Below, piece by piece: positions 7,574 to 40,748 of a DNA stretch of 64,000 bases. The stretch covers positions 1-64,000 of the forward strand of contig JACREZ010000011.1 in the NCBI GenBank assembly GCA_016212665.1, written 5' to 3'. Under the pieces are notes generated by a model. That model was not told the DNA's origin. It was given only the letters and a program-made list of their open reading frames with translations, and did no database searches. How positions within the stretch are numbered: position 1 is the stretch's first letter; each line of letters opens with the position of its first letter. This DNA comes from Ignavibacteriota bacterium (GTDB lineage Bacteria; Bacteroidota; Ignavibacteria; UBA10030; SZUA-254). A program made the position numbers and the translations under genes.

Positions 7574-10500
7574 ATGTTATCTCTCAAAAATATTCTTTGC
7601 AGTATTGCACTTGTATGTTTTTTTCAGGTTTCTGCATTCGCATCGAATTCTTTTCAAGTCAGTAAATCATCCAATCCAAGACCTTCGCTTTTCAGCAAGA
7701 CGAAGGAGAATAGTCATTATTTACATGATAGAATTATTATCAAACTGAAAAGCACCGTGACGCTTTCAAAAGGAGCGAAAATATTCGGGCTTTCAAATGT
7801 AGATAAAGTATTGTCAGAATTTTCAACCACCTCGGTTGAAAAAATGTTTGAGGAAACGAATTTGTCCCAAGCGAAAGAATCGCCGCTTACCGGAGTATTT
7901 GTGGCAAAGTTCACCGCCCCGGTGGATGCGTTTGAACTTGCAAGCGAAGTCTCACAACTTCCTGAAGTTGAATATGCGGAACCATGGTTTATTTATCCTG
8001 TTGGCGCTGATTCCATCTTTCGTCCTAATGACACGCTTTATACCAAAGGAAGCCAATGGGGATTGGGAAAAATAAAGGCTGACTCCGCATGGTATCATGC
8101 AAAGGGTGATGCTTCGGTCGTGATTGGTATAATAGATACAGGAGTGGAGTGGGACCATCCGGATTTGTATGGAAATATTTGGTTAAATCCCGGAGAAGAT
8201 GCCTGGTCTAATCCGAACGACCCTTCAACCGGAAACGGAGTTGATGACGATGGGAACGGATTCGTAGATGATTGGCGCGGCTGGGATTTCGGAGGGGCGT
8301 CGTACCAAAATCCTGTTGCAGATAACAATCCAAATGCAAAAACCGGGAATATCGGGCATGGAACACATGTTGCCGGAATTGCATCTGCCTCGACAAATAA
8401 CACAACAGGAGTTGCAGGAATAGGATTTAGTTGTAAAGTACTTCCAATCAAAACAGCTTCGGATAACGATGCTCGCGGTACGGGTGGAAATGCGTTTATT
8501 GTGTTTGGATTCCAGGGAATAAAATACGCGGCAGATGTTCACGCTGACGTTGTCAATTGCAGTTGGGGCGGCGCAGGGTATTCTCAATTCGAGCAAGATG
8601 TTGTTGATTACGCAACTGAGCGAGGAACGGTAGTCGTTGCCGCCGCAGGAAATTCAGGGTTAAGAGAAGCGCAGTATCCTGCAGCGTATCGAGGTGTTTT
8701 TTCCGTCGGGGCAAGAGTAAATGCAGGGACCGGCTATGAACTGAAAGCCGGTTACTCAACGTATCACACAAGTGTAGATGTAACTGCACCCGGAGGAAGC
8801 GGTTCGGGAATTAGCGAGATGATTCTCAGTACGTATGTTGATAGTTCGTATGCGTATATGTCCGGTACCTCCATGGCGGCGCCGTTCGTTGCAGGATTGA
8901 TTGGACTAACAAAAGCCAAATATCCTGATTTGAATTCTGAACAAGCGGCAGAGCAAGTACGAGTTACTTCAGACCCGAAAGAAAACACTCCTAATTATAG
9001 ATACTTGCTCGGGAAAGGAAGAATCAATGCGTACCGTGCTGTGAAAGATAGTTCACCTGTTTTTCCTTCAGTTCGATTACTCTCCTACGCGCTTGATGAT
9101 GAATCCGGAGGCAATGGGAATGGAATTCCTGATCCAGGTGAAACTATAAATTTACTCTGCACATTTAAAAATTATTTACGTGAAACTTCTCCAACCGCAT
9201 CCGTAACACTGGTGTCTACCGATGCGAATAAAATTCAAGTGATTAACAATTCATTTACTCTTGGGAGTATCACTACGCTTGGAACAGTAAATAACTTTTC
9301 TATTCCGTTTACAATAAAAATAGGAAGTTCTGTTGCAACAAATCTCCTTCATGAATTGAGGTTTGATTTTAAGGATGGTACTACGTACTCAGATTTTCAG
9401 TGGATTGAGTTGCTTCTGAATCCTCTTTTTATTACACATAAAGTCGGAAATGTTGCATTTTCAGTATCAAATTTCGGCTCACTTGGGTATTTTGATTACG
9501 CACAAGGTTCTGGTGTTTCGTACGGCGATGGTTTCCAGTATCCAATCGGCGACCCGTCATCACTCTTCCATGCTTCGCTGATGGTTGCAACCGATTCAAA
9601 CCACGTTGTTGATAATGCATTCGGAAATCCCAGCAATTCAAGTGCAGTTGATTGGAAAGTAGCATATGATGGTAAATTCAGTTTACCTCAAATACCAGGT
9701 ACAGACCAATTAATACAAGCCGCTTATACTGATTCAAGTGCTGGAACAAGCAGAATAGGTTTAAAAGTAAGACAAAGATCTTATGCTTACTCAACTTTTC
9801 CTGATAACGACTATATCATTATCCAATTCGATATAAAGAATATTCGTACAGATACTATCAAAAATGCTCTTGTAGGCATCTATGCCGATTGGGATATTGG
9901 CGATGTAAATGAAAATAAAGTACGTTATGATGGAACAAAGAATTTAGGATACATGTGGGATTCAACAGGTTCAAATTATTTTGGCATTTCATTGTTGACT
10001 TCAACTGTCGCTTCTTCCTTCAGAGCAGTTAATAATCCGATTTATGTTTATAATGGTTTTACTGAAGGAAACAAATATCGGTTTTTAAATGAAGGTTTTG
10101 TGTTGACTGAAGGTACTCCGATAGGAGATTGGTCATTTGTTATTAGTGCGGGACCATTTACAATTCCTCCAGGAGATAGTAACAAAGTAGCATTTGCATT
10201 TCTAGGCGGTGATAATTTGAGTGATTTGAAAGCGAATGTCGATGCGGCAAAAAATAATTGGTTAGCTTTAACGAGTGGATTAGCCATTCCAGAACTCATT
10301 TCGCCTGAAAACGATTCTGCATTTTTAAATCCTTCTCCGACATTATCTTGGGAATCAACTTCACTTGCAACAGAGTATATTTGTCAGGTTTCAACTGACC
10401 GTCTTTTCTTTCATAAAGTTGTAGATACAACAGTAACAGATACCACTCTTCAAATCGGGCCACTTACTGATAGTACGAGGTATTTCTGGAGAACCCGTGC

Positions 10501-11524
10501 AAAAAATTCAACGAGCGTAAGTCTTTGGTCTGAAATTCGAAGTTTCGTTTTATCTGTTCCGTTACAAAAACCTCAGATAACCATTTCGGTACTACAAAAT
10601 CCTGTTCTAACTAAATATTTTGATGTAATAATTAGTTCTCACATGGAATTAATTCAAAATCCATTAGTACAGACAGTCTCTGCTAATGAACGAGATACAA
10701 TTGATATGACTGAAATTTCACCCCAACTTTATAAAGGTAGTTCTGTTTTTAAGGCTACTGGTAGCTTAACTTTGCTCGTTTATGTTAAGGCAACCAATGG
10801 ACAAGATTCTGCTGCCTCAAAGACCATCAATGTAGGATTAGTTAAAAAAGGAGAGATTACAGAAATTGCTAGTGTTGATGGCGATGCAAGAGTAATTTTC
10901 CGTGAGAATACAGTTACTGAAGATATATATGTCGTTGTTTCAAAGGAAACCCCAATTAAATCAGAGAAAATTGTTTCTGCTCTATTTACCGTAAGCCCAG
11001 ATAGAAAATTTTCAAAAGATTTATCAGTAGAATTTGATTATTCAAGACTTATTATCCCCAAAGAGAAAGTTCCCCATCTTTGTGTCTATCAAAAGAAAGA
11101 GAATGAGCTTGTACAACTCGAGTCGTGGATAGACCATAAGTCAAAAAAAATCATTGGTAAAACTCAGCAGACAGGAACTTTCTTTCTTGGATTAAGTGCT
11201 ATTAATGTAGCACAAATATTGCCAGAGAATTATCAATTGTATCAGAATTATCCTAACCCATTTAATCCTTCTACCAAAATTTCATTTGATGTGGTTCAGC
11301 CCTCGCATGTGAACATAAAAATATATAATTATCTCGGACAATTAGTGAGCACACTAGTAGACGAGGATTTTATGTCTGGAAACTATAATGTGGTTTGGAA
11401 TAGTAAAAATGAAGGAGGTATTTCTATGGCTAGCGGAGTATATTTTTGCAAAATGGTAGCAGTTAATCTCCAAACTGCTACTGTTGAATATCAACAAACA
11501 ATTTCAATGACAATTATTAAATAA
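7574..11524 (+). CDS. Secreted subtilisin-like (S8) serine protease with T9SS sorting domain
   Basis: A 1316-residue exoprotein. The signal peptide is about residues 1-23, followed by an inhibitor-like propeptide (about 50-140). The S8 catalytic domain has Asp188 (IIDTGVEWDHPD), His262 (GHGTHVAG), the oxyanion Asn360 (AAAGNSG) and Ser433 (SGTSMAAP). A long beta-rich linker follows, including a fibronectin-like segment (about 910-990, LISPENDSAFLNPSPTLSW). The last ~97 residues are a type IX sorting domain opening with NYPNPFNPSTKISF. It is expected to cross the outer membrane through T9SS and stay on the surface or be released. It is the main taxonomic marker in this window. Confidence 0.95.
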   Translation: MLSLKNILCSIALVCFFQVSAFASNSFQVSKSSNPRPSLFSKTKENSHYLHDRIIIKLKSTVTLSKGAKIFGLSNVDKVLSEFSTTSVEKMFEETNLSQAKESPLTGVFVAKFTAPVDAFELASEVSQLPEVEYAEPWFIYPVGADSIFRPNDTLYTKGSQWGLGKIKADSAWYHAKGDASVVIGIIDTGVEWDHPDLYGNIWLNPGEDAWSNPNDPSTGNGVDDDGNGFVDDWRGWDFGGASYQNPVADNNPNAKTGNIGHGTHVAGIASASTNNTTGVAGIGFSCKVLPIKTASDNDARGTGGNAFIVFGFQGIKYAADVHADVVNCSWGGAGYSQFEQDVVDYATERGTVVVAAAGNSGLREAQYPAAYRGVFSVGARVNAGTGYELKAGYSTYHTSVDVTAPGGSGSGISEMILSTYVDSSYAYMSGTSMAAPFVAGLIGLTKAKYPDLNSEQAAEQVRVTSDPKENTPNYRYLLGKGRINAYRAVKDSSPVFPSVRLLSYALDDESGGNGNGIPDPGETINLLCTFKNYLRETSPTASVTLVSTDANKIQVINNSFTLGSITTLGTVNNFSIPFTIKIGSSVATNLLHELRFDFKDGTTYSDFQWIELLLNPLFITHKVGNVAFSVSNFGSLGYFDYAQGSGVSYGDGFQYPIGDPSSLFHASLMVATDSNHVVDNAFGNPSNSSAVDWKVAYDGKFSLPQIPGTDQLIQAAYTDSSAGTSRIGLKVRQRSYAYSTFPDNDYIIIQFDIKNIRTDTIKNALVGIYADWDIGDVNENKVRYDGTKNLGYMWDSTGSNYFGISLLTSTVASSFRAVNNPIYVYNGFTEGNKYRFLNEGFVLTEGTPIGDWSFVISAGPFTIPPGDSNKVAFAFLGGDNLSDLKANVDAAKNNWLALTSGLAIPELISPENDSAFLNPSPTLSWESTSLATEYICQVSTDRLFFHKVVDTTVTDTTLQIGPLTDSTRYFWRTRAKNSTSVSLWSEIRSFVLSVPLQKPQITISVLQNPVLTKYFDVIISSHMELIQNPLVQTVSANERDTIDMTEISPQLYKGSSVFKATGSLTLLVYVKATNGQDSAASKTINVGLVKKGEITEIASVDGDARVIFRENTVTEDIYVVVSKETPIKSEKIVSALFTVSPDRKFSKDLSVEFDYSRLIIPKEKVPHLCVYQKKENELVQLESWIDHKSKKIIGKTQQTGTFFLGLSAINVAQILPENYQLYQNYPNPFNPSTKISFDVVQPSHVNIKIYNYLGQLVSTLVDEDFMSGNYNVVWNSKNEGGISMASGVYFCKMVAVNLQTATVEYQQTISMTIIK

Positions 11525-28908: not shown

Positions 28909-29402
28909 TGTTCAGTGAACAAGTTTCAGTTAGAAAATTTCAATCAGAAGATAAACCTGCAATCATCAAAATTCTGAGAGCGACAAATGTTTTCAGTGAT
29001 GAAGAAATTACAATCGCAATTGAGTTGATGGACGATTTCTTACAAAAACCGAATCAACAAGATTATGATGTGTACACCGCAGTCAGCGAAGAAGGACAAG
29101 TACTCGGTTACTACTGTGTCGGTCCGACTCCACTCACGCAGGGAACATTCGATTTGTATTGGATTGCAGTAAATCCTGATTGGCATAAACAAGGTGTAGG
29201 TAGTTTGCTCAACCGTCATTGTGAAGAATTGGTCAAGTCACTCGGTGGGCGATTGATTGTTGCTGAGACATCATCGAAACCGAATTACGAAACCACACGA
29301 CGGTTCTATCATCTGCAGGGCTACCAAGAAGTTGCAAATATTAAAGACTACTACAAACCGGGTGACAGTCTTGTCATCTTCGGAAAATATGTTCAACAAT
29401 AG
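28908..29402 (+). CDS. GNAT-family N-acetyltransferase
   Basis: A 164-residue acetyl-CoA-dependent transferase. The N-terminal VRKFQSEDKPAIIKIL is the usual first strand-helix. The acetyl-CoA pyrophosphate motif is in LYWIAVNPDWHKQGVGSLLNRHCEE (Q-x-x-G-x-G/S), and the C-terminal FYHLQGYQEVANIKDYY is typical. It is coupled to the upstream ligase and 14 bases from the aminomutase gene. By analogy with the AblA/AblB pair, where a GNAT acetylates beta-lysine made by a KamA enzyme, the substrate may be a beta-amino acid or its peptide. Confidence 0.88.
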   Translation: MFSEQVSVRKFQSEDKPAIIKILRATNVFSDEEITIAIELMDDFLQKPNQQDYDVYTAVSEEGQVLGYYCVGPTPLTQGTFDLYWIAVNPDWHKQGVGSLLNRHCEELVKSLGGRLIVAETSSKPNYETTRRFYHLQGYQEVANIKDYYKPGDSLVIFGKYVQQ

Positions 29403-29416
29403 AGAAAAACAACTAT

Positions 29417-30565
29417 ATGGAACTCTGGCAAGAGTTACTTCGTCAAAGCGTTGACACAGGAAAAGATTTAGTCGAACGGTTCGGGTTTGATAAAGACCTC
29501 GCCGACCGGCTGAATAAATTTTTCCACATTCGAATCAATCCATATTATCTCAGTTTGATTCGCCACCCCGGAGACCCCATCTGGCTTCAGTGCATTCCCG
29601 ATGCAAAGGAGTTGATGGATGACGGTTTACCGGAAGACCCGTTAGCAGAAGATTCACACAGTCCCGTGCCGAGCATTGTGCACCGGTATCCCGACCGCGT
29701 ATTGTTTCTGACGACAAGTCAATGTTCGATGTACTGCCGATTCTGCACGCGCAAGCGGAAGGTCGGCGACTCAACGAAGATAAACATGAAGTACATTCAG
29801 GACGGAATTGATTACATCGCGAAGCATCCTGAAATCCGCGATGTCATTCTTTCCGGCGGCGACCCGCTCACGCTCACCGATGTGATGGTGGAAAAAATCC
29901 TGAAAGGTTTGCGGCAGATTCCTCATGTTGAGATGATTCGTCTTGGAACGAAGATTCCGTGTGTGCTTCCTCAGCGCATCACTCCGAAACTTTGCAAGAT
30001 TATCAAGAAGTATCATCCGGTGTATGTGAACACACATTTTAATCATCCGTGGGAATGTACTCCCGAAGCAAAGCGTGCATGTGAAATGCTTGCCGATGCC
30101 GGAGTTCCTATTGGCAATCAGGCAGTGTTGATGCGCGGTGTGAACGATGACGCTGAAGTAATGAAAGAGTTGTTCAGAAAACTCTTGACGATGCGTGTGC
30201 GTCCGTACTATCTCTATCAAGCCGACATTACGAAGGGAACGGATTATTTCCGCACACCTGTCAGCAAAGGGTTGGAGATTATGGACAAACTTCGAGGGCA
30301 TACTTCCGGCTTGGCAATTCCCGCGTATGTGATTGATGCGCCCGGCGGCGGCGGAAAGATTCCTATTCTTCCGCAGTACGTCATTGGTCGCGCAGGAAAG
30401 AATATTATTCTCCGAAACTACAAGTACGAGATTTTCACTTATCCCGATGTTGAAGAAAATCCTGTTAACCACAATCCACCTGTTGAAAAACCATTTCTCC
30501 GCAAGCGAAGAAATGGAAACGGCAAGCACGAGCCGGAACATGAGACGGTGGAAGTGATGGCGTAA
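29417..30565 (+). CDS. kamA: KamA-family radical SAM lysine 2,3-aminomutase
   Basis: A 382-residue radical SAM and PLP enzyme. The iron-sulfur motif CSMYCRFC (in TTSQCSMYCRFCTRKRKVG) is followed by LSGGDPLTLTD. GHTSGLAIPAYVIDAPGGGGK carries the Lys that forms the PLP aldimine and the Asp (IDAP) which, with the Asp in QADITKG, corresponds to the two aspartates that bind the lysine side-chain amine in characterised lysine 2,3-aminomutase. True KAM activity (L-lysine to beta-lysine) is therefore more likely than EpmB activity. It is the last gene of the four-gene unit and is followed by a strong terminator. Confidence 0.9.
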   Translation: MELWQELLRQSVDTGKDLVERFGFDKDLADRLNKFFHIRINPYYLSLIRHPGDPIWLQCIPDAKELMDDGLPEDPLAEDSHSPVPSIVHRYPDRVLFLTTSQCSMYCRFCTRKRKVGDSTKINMKYIQDGIDYIAKHPEIRDVILSGGDPLTLTDVMVEKILKGLRQIPHVEMIRLGTKIPCVLPQRITPKLCKIIKKYHPVYVNTHFNHPWECTPEAKRACEMLADAGVPIGNQAVLMRGVNDDAEVMKELFRKLLTMRVRPYYLYQADITKGTDYFRTPVSKGLEIMDKLRGHTSGLAIPAYVIDAPGGGGKIPILPQYVIGRAGKNIILRNYKYEIFTYPDVEENPVNHNPPVEKPFLRKRRNGNGKHEPEHETVEVMA

Positions 30566-30572
30566 ATATAAT

Positions 30573-30605
30573 GTAGGGCGACTCGGCGAGTCGCCCTACT
30601 TTTTT
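30573..30605 (+). terminator. Strong hairpin terminator after kamA
   Basis: Twelve-base perfect arms (GTAGGGCGACTC and complement, 30573-30584 and 30588-30599) are followed by six Ts. The GCGACTC core recurs in the two inverted-repeat elements at 51702 and 55277. Confidence 0.85.
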
Positions 30606-31217: not shown

Positions 31218-31268
31218 CGTCAGGTTTTTCAACCTGACGACTTTCTTGTCGGGAGGAAACTCCCGACA
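31218..31268. repeat. Two adjacent perfect hairpins with complementary tetraloops
   Basis: The first hairpin has nine-base arms CGTCAGGTT with loop TTTC (31218-31239); the second has nine-base arms TGTCGGGAG with loop GAAA (31247-31268). Loops are complementary. They lie between the Uma2 stop and the next gene. Confidence 0.8.
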
Positions 31269-31293: not shown

Positions 31294-33195
31294 ATGGATA
31301 GTGCTACGCTCGATAGTTTGATCGCTTTGCTGAAATGCGATTCTCACAAAGCGAGGTTGGCCAAGAAGCTAGATATCAGTCTGACATCAAGACTTTCGGA
31401 TGCCGATATGGACGCATTTGCAGATGTTTTACTCGATCAGACTGGCCGCATCGTTGGCGATTACTATTCACGACTTTTCGATTTCTATTTATCATGTAAT
31501 CACAATGATGACGCAATTCAGGCAGTCGGCAATATTTGGTTAGCGACGTTTTCAAAAATAGATGATGAGCAAAAGCAGACTCTGCTAGATCACTTTGCCC
31601 GAACAGATAATCACTCCTTCTGGCCCCTTGTTCCGATTCTTAGCACAATTCTACTTTCTGTGCGATTCGAGCCCGAATACTTGGCTCACTTCTTTATTGA
31701 AATGAGCAACAAGATCAAGGGGGACATGGCAGGCGGAGAATTCTACAAAGTCCTCGAATTATTATGCAGAGAAAGAAGTGATCTTTCGTTGAAGATCGTT
31801 GAGAACATTTCACGTACAGCTTCATCAGATATAGATGTGCACCTCTTATCCATACTATTAGGGAGTTTACGAAACTCGTCTTCTGTTTCGTCAGAAACAA
31901 GGGAATCGATCTCATCGCTTGAAAGATCCTTCAAGTCATCCCCTAATCTGACACTGAGAAAGAGCTATTACTTCTCTTTTGCGTATTCCTCTCTCTCACG
32001 AGATCTATCGGCAATTCCAGTTCGTGAGCTAATCGATGAGATTCTCCAAGGACAATCCGGCAATCCAAATGACTCGTTAGAATTCTTAGCCCGCATTTCA
32101 AGAACTCAGGTTGGGAACCCAGCATCTCAAACAATATTGCTGAATCACCTAAGATCAATCGCACCGAACATCATACGGTCTGGAATTCAGCAGTATTTAT
32201 CCATTCTATCCAGTGCGATACACTCTGCAAAAAGATTACCTGACCAAGCCATCGTTGCGGAAGTGTTGGATTCATTGTCATCTGCTTCTGAGATGTTCAT
32301 TCCTGACCAAGCGAATGAGCACGGACTTGTCTCTCTCTTGGGCGACATTCTATTCAGAAGCGCTTCTTATCTAGACAGGATTCTCGATGTTGTGGCTTGC
32401 CTTGATCGCGATTTGACCAGGCGGATTCTTTCAAATAATTCCTTTGAATATCACGCGAGCAAATTAGGCGGGCCAGAATTGTCACAATTACTAGGCAGGA
32501 GATTGGTTTCCACAAACTCTAGAGAGCGTTTTCTTGCTCTTGCCATGCTTGAGACCAGAACGAGCCTTGGTTGGGAGTTGGATCTATCCACTTTTCAACC
32601 GGACGAAACGGCACTTGCGATCTTATTGCTTGAGATAAAGAATCACACACTTTTGGGAGAAGCAACTTCTCAACTATTGATTTCTGTCCTTCCGCTTTTC
32701 GAAAAAGCGCCGGAAGCGATCAAGAGCGAATTCTTCCACTATCTATTCTTTCAAGCCGGCAACTATCCAGGGGCTTGTTTAGAAACATGGAAAGCTATTG
32801 GATCTCCAAGTCCTATCTTGGCTGAAGTCATTAAGATGGCGGACCATTACTTCGAGAACCTAAGAAAGAATGAGCTGAAGTTTATTCCCCAGACCTTTCC
32901 CAGCTTGGATGAGATATCAAAGCGAGGTGCGAGAGAGCAGTCAAGAAAGATAAGCGAAGAAGTAGATAAGCGATCGGTGTTTGTTGCGCTTGCGCATAAA
33001 GTGGCAATTATCTACGGGGAGAGTTGGGCTACAATTTCTCAAGGGCAACTTGGCGCTGAATCTACACCCCAACCGATATCACATTCTGTAGAGTTTCCTC
33101 GTATGGAAGAGATTGACCCTGAAGGAATGATGCTCCAACGGATGGATGCCGGCGGACGTATTCATGCGATTGAGCGAGAGGGATCAAAACAGTGA
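31294..33195 (+). CDS. Large all-helical protein of unknown function (unknown module, gene 1)
   Basis: A 633-residue protein that I do not recognise. It is predicted almost entirely alpha-helical, with repeated amphipathic helices and Leu/Ser-rich stretches (e.g. DVHLLSILLGSLRNS, LLNHLRSIAPNIIRSGIQQYL), resembling a HEAT/ARM-like solenoid. No catalytic motif, signal peptide or membrane segment is visible. I chose the ATG at 31294 over the GTG at 31285. The end overlaps the next gene by 4 bases (GTGA), so the two are coupled and probably form one complex. Its codon choice (more CTA, AGA and AGG) looks different from neighbours; this was not counted. Confidence 0.6.
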   Translation: MDSATLDSLIALLKCDSHKARLAKKLDISLTSRLSDADMDAFADVLLDQTGRIVGDYYSRLFDFYLSCNHNDDAIQAVGNIWLATFSKIDDEQKQTLLDHFARTDNHSFWPLVPILSTILLSVRFEPEYLAHFFIEMSNKIKGDMAGGEFYKVLELLCRERSDLSLKIVENISRTASSDIDVHLLSILLGSLRNSSSVSSETRESISSLERSFKSSPNLTLRKSYYFSFAYSSLSRDLSAIPVRELIDEILQGQSGNPNDSLEFLARISRTQVGNPASQTILLNHLRSIAPNIIRSGIQQYLSILSSAIHSAKRLPDQAIVAEVLDSLSSASEMFIPDQANEHGLVSLLGDILFRSASYLDRILDVVACLDRDLTRRILSNNSFEYHASKLGGPELSQLLGRRLVSTNSRERFLALAMLETRTSLGWELDLSTFQPDETALAILLLEIKNHTLLGEATSQLLISVLPLFEKAPEAIKSEFFHYLFFQAGNYPGACLETWKAIGSPSPILAEVIKMADHYFENLRKNELKFIPQTFPSLDEISKRGAREQSRKISEEVDKRSVFVALAHKVAIIYGESWATISQGQLGAESTPQPISHSVEFPRMEEIDPEGMMLQRMDAGGRIHAIEREGSKQ

Positions 33196-35063
33196 TTCCG
33201 GACCATTTCAAATCATTTTTGACTGATTATGTCGGGTCACTCAAGGAGCGAACCCGTGGTGAAAAGGGTGGGAACAAGTTTGGCCTAGATTGGCTGATAT
33301 ATAACTATGGTTTGCTGAACGGCCTGATACCAATTAGGCTGCCATTCAGACGCCAATCGGGTGCAGAGATTGCACAATCTACGGCTGGAACTGAGTTCGG
33401 GATTGACGTGGCTTTTCTGACGGCGGACGAACTCACATTAACGATATTTGTGCTTAAAGATGAGGAACTAACAAACCAAACATGGACGAAGCATTCGTTT
33501 GGTGATGACCTTGAAAAAGCAAAATATCCCGATTTGTCCAGATCTGAATTGAGTAAAGTCAATTCGGTTGAAATCATTCTTGCATACAACAAAGATGAAA
33601 AAGTTGAGGGAGTGCAGTTATTCGAGAATTTAGCGAAAGGCTCTAACCCTTCAATTCATCATCCTGTCGCCGGGGAAATTCCACTTAGTTTTGTCAGGTG
33701 GAATCTGAGCAAGATTGTCGACGAGATAGCGACTACGGCGCTAGATCCGACTATTCTTCCGCAGCACTTATCGGGAACGCTTGTTCACTTAAGCCATTTA
33801 GTGGCGCGTGTCGAGTATGGGACAAGTGAATGGAAGAACATGGTTGCCCCGGCGTGGGATTCATACCTGGATGAAGTTCTCTCAAGGTCTGGAAAAGTAG
33901 GCACACTTCAGACTATACCGATTAGCCTGATTGTGTTGAAATCATATCTTGAGACTTCGACATTCAATCAACTGTGCGGATGGATCGAACTTATTGAGTG
34001 GGCTGTAGTTAAAAGCTGGGGATATTTTGAAGATTCTGATGCCGAAGGTAAACAGATAATCTTTGGGCTTTTATCACACCTATATCTCCAAGAGTTGCTT
34101 TTCTACATTGGAGAGGCAGATAATTCACTCGGCGTCGAACATTCACTCTCTAAACCTAGAAGAGCCTTCAGCTATATCAACACAATAAATGATGCCAATC
34201 GTGCATATTGGTTGATTGCGCGTATCGGAATTCTGAGCTTGGCTTTACAGGATTGTATTGACACAGCAAGTCCGGCAGGTAAAAAGTTCGCAACCGATAC
34301 AATACAAAAACTGGGCAAGACGCTCACCCGTCTTATTAACAACAATCCGGCCTGCTACCGTCCACTTATCGATCTCCATCATATTCAGATCTTCTTGGCT
34401 TGGCTCCTATTCTGGCAAACCGGTGCTCGGGACGAGATGTTTGCCTTGTTGCATTCCATAGCCACCAGGCTGCTTCTCCGAAGGACTGGTAGCCTCCCAA
34501 TTCCATTTCCGGATGGTTGGAACCAAATTGATGTTGTGGCCGAATATGTAGCACTTGGTAAGCGTCCCTACGGCTATTGTGCTGAAAGCTCCTATCTCAT
34601 TCTCATGCTTGCAGAGTTATCTTTCTCGTTTGAACCTGAAACTCGTGATCAGCTCTTAGAGAAGGTCTATACTCGCCTTACACTTGGTATTTCGCCTAGT
34701 GGCGAACAGTATATGTTCAAGCCGGACGGGTCAGACATACGACAACTGGATCTATTGTGGTGGTCACCGGATGACAAATGGATGAAGGAGCTCTTCAAAA
34801 AGAAATCACGAAATGGAGTTGCGGTAAACCTAATGGAGCTTGCTGACGATCAAAGCACAGAATCGTTGGCTGATAAATTCAGCCGGTTTGTAACTTCTAC
34901 CCGGACCAAATATCCTTTTACGGTCGCAGCACATATTCCAAAATCTGTTCTTATTCTTGGATGCCTTTGGAATGAGTCTCCATTGCCTTCTGAATTTTGG
35001 AGAAGCGTAATCTTCCCAATCGAAGAAGAAGCATCAACGGATGCCCATGTCCATGTTGTCTAA
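33192..35063 (+). CDS. Large protein of unknown function (unknown module, gene 2)
   Basis: A 623-residue protein that I do not recognise. Residues about 45-170 look like a mixed alpha/beta domain: GTEFGIDVAFL, then a strand LTLTIFVLKDEEL and a second strand SVEIILAYNKDE. The G-x-D ... strand-Lys spacing is reminiscent of restriction-endonuclease-like folds, but the acidic residue two before the Lys is missing, so nuclease activity is only a guess. Residues 190-600 are mainly helical and Trp/Leu-rich (DLLWWSPDDKWMKELF near the end). The start is GTG at 33192, overlapping the upstream stop. There is no signal peptide. Confidence 0.6.
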   Translation: MIPDHFKSFLTDYVGSLKERTRGEKGGNKFGLDWLIYNYGLLNGLIPIRLPFRRQSGAEIAQSTAGTEFGIDVAFLTADELTLTIFVLKDEELTNQTWTKHSFGDDLEKAKYPDLSRSELSKVNSVEIILAYNKDEKVEGVQLFENLAKGSNPSIHHPVAGEIPLSFVRWNLSKIVDEIATTALDPTILPQHLSGTLVHLSHLVARVEYGTSEWKNMVAPAWDSYLDEVLSRSGKVGTLQTIPISLIVLKSYLETSTFNQLCGWIELIEWAVVKSWGYFEDSDAEGKQIIFGLLSHLYLQELLFYIGEADNSLGVEHSLSKPRRAFSYINTINDANRAYWLIARIGILSLALQDCIDTASPAGKKFATDTIQKLGKTLTRLINNNPACYRPLIDLHHIQIFLAWLLFWQTGARDEMFALLHSIATRLLLRRTGSLPIPFPDGWNQIDVVAEYVALGKRPYGYCAESSYLILMLAELSFSFEPETRDQLLEKVYTRLTLGISPSGEQYMFKPDGSDIRQLDLLWWSPDDKWMKELFKKKSRNGVAVNLMELADDQSTESLADKFSRFVTSTRTKYPFTVAAHIPKSVLILGCLWNESPLPSEFWRSVIFPIEEEASTDAHVHVV

Positions 35064-35349
35064 GACATATGATTGTCTTGTTTCCAAGCTCTCAGACTTG
35101 GTGAGAGTTCCAGTTACGTTGTATGTCATCATCCGCAATTTACTACCTGCAGCTGAGTAAAATAATTTTAGATTGCGTGCGTCCGTCTGGGTAAAAACTT
35201 TCAATACGATTGTAACGGATTGCCTCAAATGTTCGATTGCGAATCGGACGCTACGATTAAGACTTATTAAAACCCTCCTGTGTTGGTGTTTAGGGGAAAC
35301 TCGTACACTATTTCGAGTTTGTTTCCCTTCCTCTTCTTTCTTACATTTT
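35064..35349. other. Intergenic region with scattered inverted repeats
   Basis: No gene is seen. It holds CCAAG/CTTGG (35084-35101), GCGTCCG/CGGACGC (35079 region overlap excluded; the pair is at 35179-35185 and 35245-35251 as read), CGATT-GCG-AATCG (35234-35246), and AAACTCG/CGAGTTT (about 35297-35320) followed by a C/T-rich stretch that could act as a weak terminator for the unknown pair. Confidence 0.4.
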
Positions 35350-35392
35350 CATACCAACAAATTAACCAATCACCAATTAACTACTCACTAAG
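35350..35392. repeat. Period-7 tract before dnaG
   Basis: Heptads AATTAAC/CAATCAC/CAATTAA/CTACTCA/CTAAG run up to the TTG start of dnaG. Confidence 0.55.
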
Positions 35393-37288
35393 TTGAGATT
35401 TGCTCCCGACAAAATAGAAGAAATCCGTATTGCAACCGATATTATTGAACTCATCGGTGCGCATGTGCAATTGAAGCGGCGCGGGAAGAATTACACCGGG
35501 TTGTGCCCATTCCATGTCGAGAAGACTCCGTCGTTTTCGGTTTCATCAGAGAAGCAGATGTTTTACTGTTTCGGATGTGGAAAAGGAGGCAACGCATTTT
35601 CCTTCATGATGGAATACGAAAAGGTGTCGTTTCAGGAAGCGGTGCGTGCGTTGGCGGAGAAAGCGGGCATCGCTCTTCCCGTGTATGAATCAGAACAGGA
35701 AGCGCAAGCAAATCAATTCGAGGAACTCTACCTCGTTTGTCAGAAGTCGGCGAGATTTTTCTATCAAAACTTAACCGAAACGGTGGAAGGGAAATTCGCT
35801 CTTGAATATTTCCGTCACCGGGGATTTCGGGATGAAACGATTCGTCAGTTCGGACTTGGTTATTCGATGAATACGTGGGACAGTCTTATCAAGTTTGCTG
35901 AGAAGGAAAACATCTCAACTGATATGTTGCATCAAGCCGGACTTGTGCGAAAGCGGGACGATGGTTCGTTCTATGATTATTATCGCGGGCGTGCGATGTT
36001 CCCGATTTTTTCTCCGACAGGACGTGTGATTGGTTTCGGCGCGAGAAAGATGTATGAGGATGATGCGATTGCAGGAAAATATATCAACTCGCCTGAGACA
36101 CAAATTTACAACAAAAGCAGAGTTCTCTATGGACTTTTTCAAGCGAAGGATGCGTTACGTGAACATGACAATGCAATCTTGGTTGAGGGCTACGCTGACC
36201 TGATTACATCGTTTCAAGCCGGCGTAAAAAATGTTGTCGCATCAAGCGGAACAGCGCTGACGCCGGAACAAATTCATTTGCTCAGTCGCTACGCGAAGAA
36301 AGTAACGATTGTGTATGACGCCGATTCTGCCGGCTCGAATGCCGCACTGCGCGGTGTTGATATTATTCTCGAACGTGGAATGGATGTTCGCGTTGCATCG
36401 CTTCCCGAAGGAGATGACCCGGACAGTTTTGTGAAGAAACAAGGTGGCGAAGCATTTCAGGAATTGCTCGATGAATCGGTTTCGTTCATTGATTTCATGG
36501 CGCAATCGTTCGAGCGGAAGGGATTGTTTGATTCGCCGGAAGGACAAACGCAGGCAGTCCGTACGATTGTACAATCAATTGCAAAAATCAAAGACGAACT
36601 GAAGCGTGATTTCTTCATTAAAAATCTTGCAGAAAAATATCGTCTGTACGAGACGACGTTGTATCGTGAGTTGGAGAAATCTCTTGTAGAAGAACAGAAG
36701 CGTTCGCGAGTTGTTGCAGAATATGATAAGACCACAACAACATTCTCCCAACCTGCGATTCAACCGAATTCTGTCAAGTCTCAAGAATTAATCATCCCGA
36801 ACAATGAGAAAGAGTTAACACGAGCAATGTTGGAGGGGGGCGAAACAGTTACCCGATTTGTGTTTGAACATCTTACTCTCGACGAATTTTTACATCCGAA
36901 GACACGGGCGATTGCACAACATCTTCTTTCCGTTATGGAAGAAGGTCGCACTATCGAGCCGTCATCGTTCATTAATGAATTGGAAGATGAACAACTCAAA
37001 CAGTTTGTGACAACGATTGTCTTTTCAAAATACCACATCAGCAAGCGATGGGAAGAATCGGGCGCAAACTTAGAGCAAGGCGAGCCGATGAAAATCGCTG
37101 TTGATGCAATCATCCAAATGAAAAAACAACAGATTGAAAAACTCATCGAACAGAATCAACAGGAACTCAGACAAGTAGCGCAACGAGGTGACGATGTTGT
37201 TCCGTACCTCGAACGAAATAAGGAATTGATTGAGGCGAAGCGGAACTTGGAATCGAACGGATTGGTGGAGAGAAAGGCGTTTGAATAG
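35393..37288 (+). CDS. dnaG: DNA primase DnaG
   Basis: A 631-residue replication primase. The CHC2 zinc domain has Cys38, His41, Cys59 and Cys62 (LCPFHVEKTPSFSV...FYCFGCGKGG). The TOPRIM core shows ILVEGYADLI (catalytic Glu) and VTIVYDADSAG (DxD). The C-terminal third (about 440-631) is the helical DnaB-interaction region. The start is TTG at 35393, giving MRFAPDKIEEIRIATDIIEL, the conserved beginning, so the rare start is credible. Confidence 0.97.
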   Translation: MRFAPDKIEEIRIATDIIELIGAHVQLKRRGKNYTGLCPFHVEKTPSFSVSSEKQMFYCFGCGKGGNAFSFMMEYEKVSFQEAVRALAEKAGIALPVYESEQEAQANQFEELYLVCQKSARFFYQNLTETVEGKFALEYFRHRGFRDETIRQFGLGYSMNTWDSLIKFAEKENISTDMLHQAGLVRKRDDGSFYDYYRGRAMFPIFSPTGRVIGFGARKMYEDDAIAGKYINSPETQIYNKSRVLYGLFQAKDALREHDNAILVEGYADLITSFQAGVKNVVASSGTALTPEQIHLLSRYAKKVTIVYDADSAGSNAALRGVDIILERGMDVRVASLPEGDDPDSFVKKQGGEAFQELLDESVSFIDFMAQSFERKGLFDSPEGQTQAVRTIVQSIAKIKDELKRDFFIKNLAEKYRLYETTLYRELEKSLVEEQKRSRVVAEYDKTTTTFSQPAIQPNSVKSQELIIPNNEKELTRAMLEGGETVTRFVFEHLTLDEFLHPKTRAIAQHLLSVMEEGRTIEPSSFINELEDEQLKQFVTTIVFSKYHISKRWEESGANLEQGEPMKIAVDAIIQMKKQQIEKLIEQNQQELRQVAQRGDDVVPYLERNKELIEAKRNLESNGLVERKAFE

Positions 37289-40251: not shown

Positions 40252-40485
40252 ATGGAAATGACACTTCGTATGAATGCGGGTCAACTTAATTCCGAACTTC
40301 TTGAGAAGATTCAAGACATGTTTCGGGATAAGGAAATCGAAATTACCGTGAATGAGATTGACGAGACAGAGTATTTATTCCGTTTTTCAGAAAACAAACG
40401 ACGCTTGCTGAACGCGATTGAGAATGTTGAACTCGGGAAAAACCTTATTCATGTACCGCTGAGTGATATTGAGAAAGTAGCGTGA
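40252..40485 (+). CDS. Putative antitoxin partner of the YoeB toxin
   Basis: A 77-residue acidic protein. The N-terminal half (MTLRMNAGQLNSELLEKIQDMF) could form the strand-helix of a DNA-binding antitoxin. The C-terminal half (FSENKRRLLNAIENVELGKNL, then IHVPLSDIEKV) matches the toxin-binding tail of many RelB/YefM-like antitoxins (rLL-aIeni-xGkxlv...ldElek). It does not look like canonical YefM at its N-terminus. Overlapping the toxin gene by 4 bases supports the assignment. Confidence 0.7.
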   Translation: MEMTLRMNAGQLNSELLEKIQDMFRDKEIEITVNEIDETEYLFRFSENKRRLLNAIENVELGKNLIHVPLSDIEKVA

Positions 40486-40748
40486 GGAATATTTTCTTTG
40501 AAAACAGCGCGTTCAAGGATTTTACTGAATGGGGAATCCATGACAGGAAACTCCAACAGCGCATTGCACAACTTATACTTGAAATTACGCGAACTCCTTT
40601 TGAAGGGAAGGGAAAACCCGAACCGCTCAAACACATAAAAGGAGGCTACTGGTCACGCAGAATTAATGATGAACATCGTCTCGTTTGCAAAGTTACTGAA
40701 GAGGCGATAATCATCGTATCATGTAAATATCATTATGATTTGAAATGA
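40482..40748 (+). CDS. yoeB: YoeB/Txe-family mRNA endoribonuclease toxin
   Basis: An 88-residue toxin that cleaves mRNA at the ribosome. It aligns by eye with YoeB over its whole length. The catalytic residues of E. coli YoeB (Glu46, Arg65, His83, Tyr84) correspond here to Glu47, Arg66, His84 and Tyr85 in GKPEPLKHIKGGYWSRRI, EHRLV and KYHYDLK. The start is GTG at 40482, inside the antitoxin stop. All key residues are intact. It overlaps the next gene (ATGA). Confidence 0.92.
   Translation: MRNIFFENSAFKDFTEWGIHDRKLQQRIAQLILEITRTPFEGKGKPEPLKHIKGGYWSRRINDEHRLVCKVTEEAIIIVSCKYHYDLK

What the first reader, a model, noticed from the sequence alone, without database searches (positions are those of the whole stretch)
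31294..35063. Translationally coupled pair of large unknown proteins flanked by hairpin DNA
Seen: 633- and 623-residue proteins overlapping by 4 bases, the first an all-helical solenoid, the second with an alpha/beta N-terminal domain (G-x-D ... strand with VLKDE) and a helical remainder. They lie behind a Uma2 gene and two perfect hairpins, before a region rich in inverted repeats, between housekeeping blocks. Inference: an accessory module gained as a unit; a defence or stress role is possible but not shown.
Basis: partly seen in the sequence, partly recalled or inferred. Interest (0 to 1): 0.68.

Follow-up and report, generated by a model that had tools for sequence, protein, structure and literature searches.

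The report
Divergent Olokun anti-phage defence pair
The two large overlapping genes are a far-diverged version of the known but mechanistically unexplained Olokun anti-phage system; OloB starts with a nuclease-like domain whose active site is unusual, and its nearest relatives carry an extra, third gene that is not part of the known system.

Summary
The pair is real: 633- and 623-residue proteins whose genes overlap by 4 bases (GTGA). It is not family-less. Both proteins match the PADLOC models OloA and OloB (E about 4e-24 each, nearly full length, same order), so it is an Olokun-type defence module.

OloB relatives have oloA directly upstream in 69 of 70 genomes, and neighbours include many defence genes. 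The module is accessory: absent from 99 of 100 sampled relatives, and in a sister genome the flanking kamA and dnaG lie 158 bases apart. Uma2 is not part of it.

OloA is a HEAT-like solenoid. OloB residues 1-189 adopt a PD-(D/E)xK-like fold, closest to the FokI nuclease domain. E19, D72 and K89 are invariant in 58 sequences, but the usual acid two residues before the lysine is missing.

The window belongs to a deep separate lineage (100/100 support). Its three known relatives carry a third gene between oloA and oloB, a free-standing copy of the OloB N-terminal domain; the window lacks it. Olokun's mechanism is listed as unknown, so the nuclease reading is a testable inference, not shown.

The parts
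31294..33195 (+). oloA-like gene, 633 aa, all-helical HEAT-like solenoid
   Evidence: PADLOC OloA PDLC03925 E 4.1e-24, residues 61-617; family profile built here without the window 3.4e-24; AlphaFold2 model pLDDT 80, best PDB matches SF3B1 and PP2A-A HEAT solenoids
32971..33144 (+). conserved OloA C-terminal motif (S.F......YG.S ... S.E.PR...DP), about residues 560-617; beta-hairpin in the model
   Evidence: alignment A3 and profile alignment; model strands 569-573 and 577-582
33192..35063 (+). oloB-like gene, 623 aa, GTG start in the 4-base overlap GTGA
   Evidence: PADLOC OloB PDLC03926 E 4.5e-24, residues 57-607; family profile built here without the window 2.5e-19; 34-37% identity to OloB of L140-L142
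33192..33758 (+). OloB residues 1-189: PD-(D/E)xK-like nuclease-fold domain; invariant E19 (33246-33248), D72 (33405-33407), K89 (33456-33458), W170
   Evidence: AlphaFold2 model H H E E E H E H E; VIA-align FokI 2fok Z 9.5, rmsd 4.2, 148 aligned, MspJI Z 8.2; residue counts in 58 sequences
33759..35063 (+). OloB residues 190-623: alpha-helical remainder, TPR/HEAT-like
   Evidence: model and its matches
31218..31268 (.). two perfect 9-base-pair hairpins between Uma2 and oloA (31218-31239, 31247-31268); flanking, function unknown
   Evidence: the first exists once in the genome
30566..35317 (.). segment absent from the kamA-dnaG junction of sister genome G002 (homology covers 29190-30565 and 35318-37213); includes Uma2, which has its own history
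   Evidence: blastn of L128 and L129 to the window

Best explanation
The locus is a horizontally acquired, deep-branching member of the Olokun (OloA-OloB) anti-phage defence family. Shown here by computation: family membership of both proteins, near-obligatory pairing, patchy accessory distribution, an empty site, a HEAT-like solenoid in OloA and a PD-(D/E)xK-like fold at the N-terminus of OloB. Inferred: OloA and the helical part of OloB form a scaffold that recognises a sign of infection, and the OloB N-terminal domain then cuts nucleic acid, with E19, D72 and K89 as its active site in a permuted arrangement (an acid from the first helix or elsewhere replacing the missing one two residues before the lysine), as in CCGG-family restriction enzymes. 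Whether it would cut phage or host DNA or RNA is not known.
For: PADLOC OloA and OloB at 4.1e-24 and 4.5e-24. Profiles rebuilt from 67-69 independent sequences, window left out, give 3.4e-24 and 2.5e-19. oloA directly upstream of oloB in 69 of 70 genomes; the exception L074 is near a contig edge; 56 of 69 allow the 4-base overlap. OloA and OloB trees put the window with L140-L142 at 100/99 and 100/100. Present in 1 of 100 relatives, 8 of 395 in the phylum and 5 of 391 in the class, some of these hits being another HEAT-plus-nuclease pair rather than Olokun. Empty site in G002. Neighbours of the 70 loci include type I RM subunits, Mokosh MkoB, DrmMII, Septu, pAgo, Lamassu, SoFic, AbiV. Nuclease fold: FokI Z 9.5 over 148 residues, MspJI, EcoT38I. 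E19, G70, D72, K89, W170 invariant in 58 sequences. Residues 1-189 are more conserved than the rest between the window and its nearest relatives (41-50% against 31-35%). Permuted catalytic motifs with a helix glutamate exist in active enzymes (PMC6344858).
Against: No acid two residues before K89 in nearly all homologues (S, V or T in 55 of 58), so catalysis is uncertain. The FokI match is at the level of fold only; Foldseek itself gave no significant hit, and Z 9.5 is not far above unrelated rows of the same list. Sequence identity to canonical Olokun is only 16-20%. No defence gene other than Olokun was identified beside it in the window; the other PADLOC matches there were not assigned to genes. 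No experiment on this lineage.
Confidence: 0.72

Rival explanations
1. The OloB N-terminal domain is a catalytically dead PD-(D/E)xK fold that only binds nucleic acid; the Olokun system acts by binding or sequestering, or through a partner.
For: The acid two residues before the lysine is missing across the family. In the window protein further near-invariant canonical residues are changed (E22R, R67T, Q68E, G91E, R95N).
Against: E19, D72 and K89 are invariant in all 58 sequences, which is typical of a catalytic set; active restriction enzymes with permuted acids are known (PMC6344858).
Confidence: 0.35
2. The window locus is a reduced, perhaps impaired, derivative of a three-gene Olokun variant: it lost the free-standing nuclease-like gene and may no longer work fully.
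For: All three nearest relatives (L140-L142) carry a 228-239-aa gene between oloA and oloB whose sequence aligns to residues 5-154 of canonical OloB (PADLOC OloB E 4.8e-6 for L142; HHalign probability 91%, E 1.1e-6). The window genome has no copy. The fused domain is diverged in the same way in window and relatives, as if it had been freed by the extra copy.
Against: Both window genes are intact and coupled by a 4-base overlap; the OloB N-terminal domain is the most conserved part. In the OloA tree the window is outside the three, so the third gene may have been gained by them instead of lost here.
Confidence: 0.35
3. A pair with a cellular (stress or housekeeping) role unrelated to defence.
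For: Here it sits between housekeeping genes without any defence neighbour identified beside it, and GC content is ordinary.
Against: Absent from 99 of 100 relatives, empty site in a sister, family members lie beside many defence genes and the family is a listed defence system (PMC10121019; PMC12926258).
Confidence: 0.06

Closest known systems
Olokun defence system (OloA-OloB; Millman et al. 2022, known to me from memory, paper not held; listed as a defence system in PMC10121019 and with unknown mechanism in PMC12926258)
   Same: Two genes in the same order, nearly full-length profile matches for both, same 4-base coupling, same C-terminal OloA motif, same invariant E...GxD...K...W set in OloB
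   Different: Only 16-20% identical in OloB; separate lineage at 100/100; 9-10-residue insertion between E19 and D33; VLKDE instead of hhKxG(D/N) after the strand; relatives have a third gene
Three-gene relatives L140 (G609), L141 (G493), L142 (G530)
   Same: OloB 34-37% and OloA 24-26% identical to the window proteins; same class of bacteria
   Different: A free-standing 228-239-aa copy of the OloB N-terminal domain lies between oloA and oloB; the window lacks it
PD-(D/E)xK nucleases (FokI cleavage domain; permuted CCGG family such as NgoMIV and PfoI)
   Same: Fold of residues 1-189 (FokI Z 9.5); invariant D and K; a conserved glutamate in the first helix as in the CCGG family
   Different: No detectable sequence similarity to solved structures; no acid two residues before the lysine; no cleavage shown

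Membership tests
Olokun | OloA protein matching the family model over most of its length | tested here: met
   PDLC03925 E 4.1e-24, model 27-587 of 596; own profile 3.4e-24
Olokun | OloB protein matching the family model over most of its length | tested here: met
   PDLC03926 E 4.5e-24, model 30-554 of 556; own profile 2.5e-19, in which the N-terminal stretch alone scores only 0.6 bits
Olokun | oloA directly upstream of oloB on the same strand | tested here: met
   window 33192-33195 overlap; 69 of 70 family loci
Olokun | Protection against phage | not testable with these tools
   needs an experiment
PD-(D/E)xK nuclease superfamily | alpha-beta-beta-beta-alpha-beta core fold | tested here: met
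   model order H H E E E H E H E for residues 4-183; FokI Z 9.5, 148 aligned; moderate-confidence model
PD-(D/E)xK nuclease superfamily | Active-site D and K | tested here: met
   D72 and K89 invariant in 58 sequences; their geometry was not measured
PD-(D/E)xK nuclease superfamily | Acid (D/E) two residues before the lysine | tested here: not met
   V87 here; S, V or T in 55 of 58 homologues; a permuted acid is possible but unproven
PD-(D/E)xK nuclease superfamily | Nucleic-acid cleavage | not testable with these tools
   needs an experiment

The most novel reading that the evidence does not exclude
The window pair and L140-L142 are a distinct Olokun subtype, in which the nuclease-like domain was duplicated into a separate gene and the fused copy took on a new conserved motif (FGID...IFVLKDE...W.K..F..D); the window is a two-gene form that works with the changed domain alone.
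Probability: 0.5. Interest if true: 0.55.

Novelty: new variant of a known kind. Interest (0 to 1): 0.45.

Why it matters
Olokun is a described defence system whose mechanism is still listed as unknown. A second, very distant lineage shows which residues never change (E19, G70, D72, K89, W170), points to a nuclease-like effector with an unusual active site, and supplies a natural split of that domain into its own gene, which makes the catalytic question directly testable.

Tried and rejected
Pfam: no family for either protein above its cut-off. PDB sequence search: nothing for OloB; OloA matches only generic armadillo/HEAT repeats. Plasmids, phages and viral contigs: no relative of the window OloB or of the L141 OloB at the thresholds used, none of the window OloA on plasmids; canonical OloB occurs on 34 plasmids and on no phage record. 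A first genome-contig scan with the window OloB alone found nothing. Uma2 as part of the module: rejected, since G001 has Uma2 at this place and no OloB match in its genome. Downstream inverted-repeat-rich region: not found. tRNA as insertion site: none in the window. Hairpins as repeated mobile elements: the two searched have one exact copy each in the genome; the first is followed by a T run and looks like a terminator of kamA. Foldseek alone did not return the nuclease match; it appeared only in the VIA-align second look.

Full report
What is there. The window holds two overlapping genes at 31294-33195 (633 aa) and 33192-35063 (623 aa), sharing the four bases GTGA. Upstream lie kamA, a terminator-like hairpin, a Uma2 gene and two 9-base-pair hairpins; downstream comes dnaG. 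The pair has ordinary GC content, but oloA ranks second of 51 window genes for unusual codon use. The downstream spacer is not unusually rich in inverted repeats.

What it is. Pfam is silent, but PADLOC gives OloA for the first protein (E 4.1e-24) and OloB for the second (E 4.5e-24), each over nearly the whole model. These are the two proteins of Olokun. To test this independently, 70 OloB loci were collected from public genomes. oloA lies directly upstream in 69 of them, and the one without it is near a contig edge; in 56 of 69 a 4-base overlap is possible. Profiles built from these sequences without the window recover the window proteins at 3.4e-24 and 2.5e-19. The characteristic OloA C-terminal motif is conserved in the window protein. 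Genes next to the 70 loci include many that match defence models: type I restriction subunits, Mokosh, DISARM, Septu, Argonaute, Lamassu, SoFic and AbiV; several annotated plasmid loci also lie beside such genes.

Accessory status. OloB occurs in 1 of 100 sampled relatives, the window genome itself. kamA and dnaG are close neighbours in several relatives, for example 158 bases apart in the sister genome G002, whose sequence matches the window on both sides of the insert (29190-30565 and 35318-37213). Sister genome G001 has the hairpin and Uma2 behind kamA but no OloB match, so Uma2 has its own history and is not part of the module.

Structure and likely mechanism. The OloA model (pLDDT 80) is a HEAT-like solenoid, closest to SF3B1 and PP2A-A; this is a common architecture and says little about function. 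The OloB model (pLDDT 75, pTM 0.70) has an alpha/beta domain in residues 1-189 followed by helices. In the VIA-align comparison this domain matches the FokI nuclease domain (Z 9.5, rmsd 4.2, 148 residues), MspJI (Z 8.2) and EcoT38I (Z 6.8), all PD-(D/E)xK enzymes; Foldseek alone gave no significant match. Over 58 sequences E19, G70, D72, K89 and W170 never change, while the position two before the lysine, normally an acid, is S, V or T in 55 of 58. Active restriction enzymes of the CCGG family have permuted acids, and PfoI uses a glutamate in the N-terminal helix (PMC6344858). The best reading is therefore a nuclease effector with a permuted active site, held by two solenoid parts that sense infection; catalysis, substrate and trigger are inferred, not shown. 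The literature held here lists the mechanism of Olokun as unknown (PMC12926258); the original description (Millman et al. 2022) was not available.

A separate lineage with a third gene. A class-wide search found three closer relatives, L140, L141 and L142, with OloB 34-37% and OloA 24-26% identical to the window proteins. Trees of OloB and of OloA group the window with these three at 100/100 and 100/99, far from all canonical members. In all three, a gene of 228-239 codons lies between oloA and oloB. It aligns to residues 5-154 of canonical OloB (HHalign probability 91%, E 1.1e-6; PADLOC OloB 4.8e-6 for the L142 copy): a free-standing copy of the nuclease-like domain. No such free-standing gene was found in the 70 canonical loci, nor in the window genome. 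The fused domain of this lineage shares a new motif (FGID ... IFVLKDE ... This domain is more conserved between the window and its relatives (41-50%) than the rest of OloB (31-35%), so it appears to be under selection here too. Whether the window lost the third gene or its relatives gained it cannot be settled: in the OloA tree the window lies outside the three, and in the OloB tree the order is unresolved.

Verdict. Its value lies in the deep lineage, the third gene in its relatives and the strongly conserved nuclease-like domain with an unusual active site.

Noticed in passing
L013 7669-11662, L014 7957-11923, L015 5072-9240, L143 6751-10930: A different two-gene pair: an 834-895-aa HEAT-like protein followed by a 490-500-aa protein. 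In L013 both match the PADLOC OloA and OloB models (1e-62, 2e-50), while the L014 second protein also matches LmuA (4e-16) and carries a standard D...ExK motif. The PADLOC Olokun models may mix two systems.
   Followed up: partly
L140 3320-7778, L141 3467-7917, L142 3542-8004: Three-gene Olokun variant; L140 lies beside an Eco57I-type methyltransferase gene and L142 beside a PifA-like KAP ATPase and a type I restriction subunit fragment.
   Followed up: yes
window 30573-30599 and L129: The hairpin behind kamA keeps its outer arms in sister genome G001 while the inner bases changed on both sides and still pair, so the hairpin itself seems to be kept.
   Followed up: no
window 7574-11524: A 1316-aa subtilase-like protein with a weak C-terminal sorting-domain match has by far the most atypical codon use of the window (z 17).
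   Followed up: partly
window 40482-40748: A YoeB-like toxin gene (Pfam E 6e-32).
   Followed up: no
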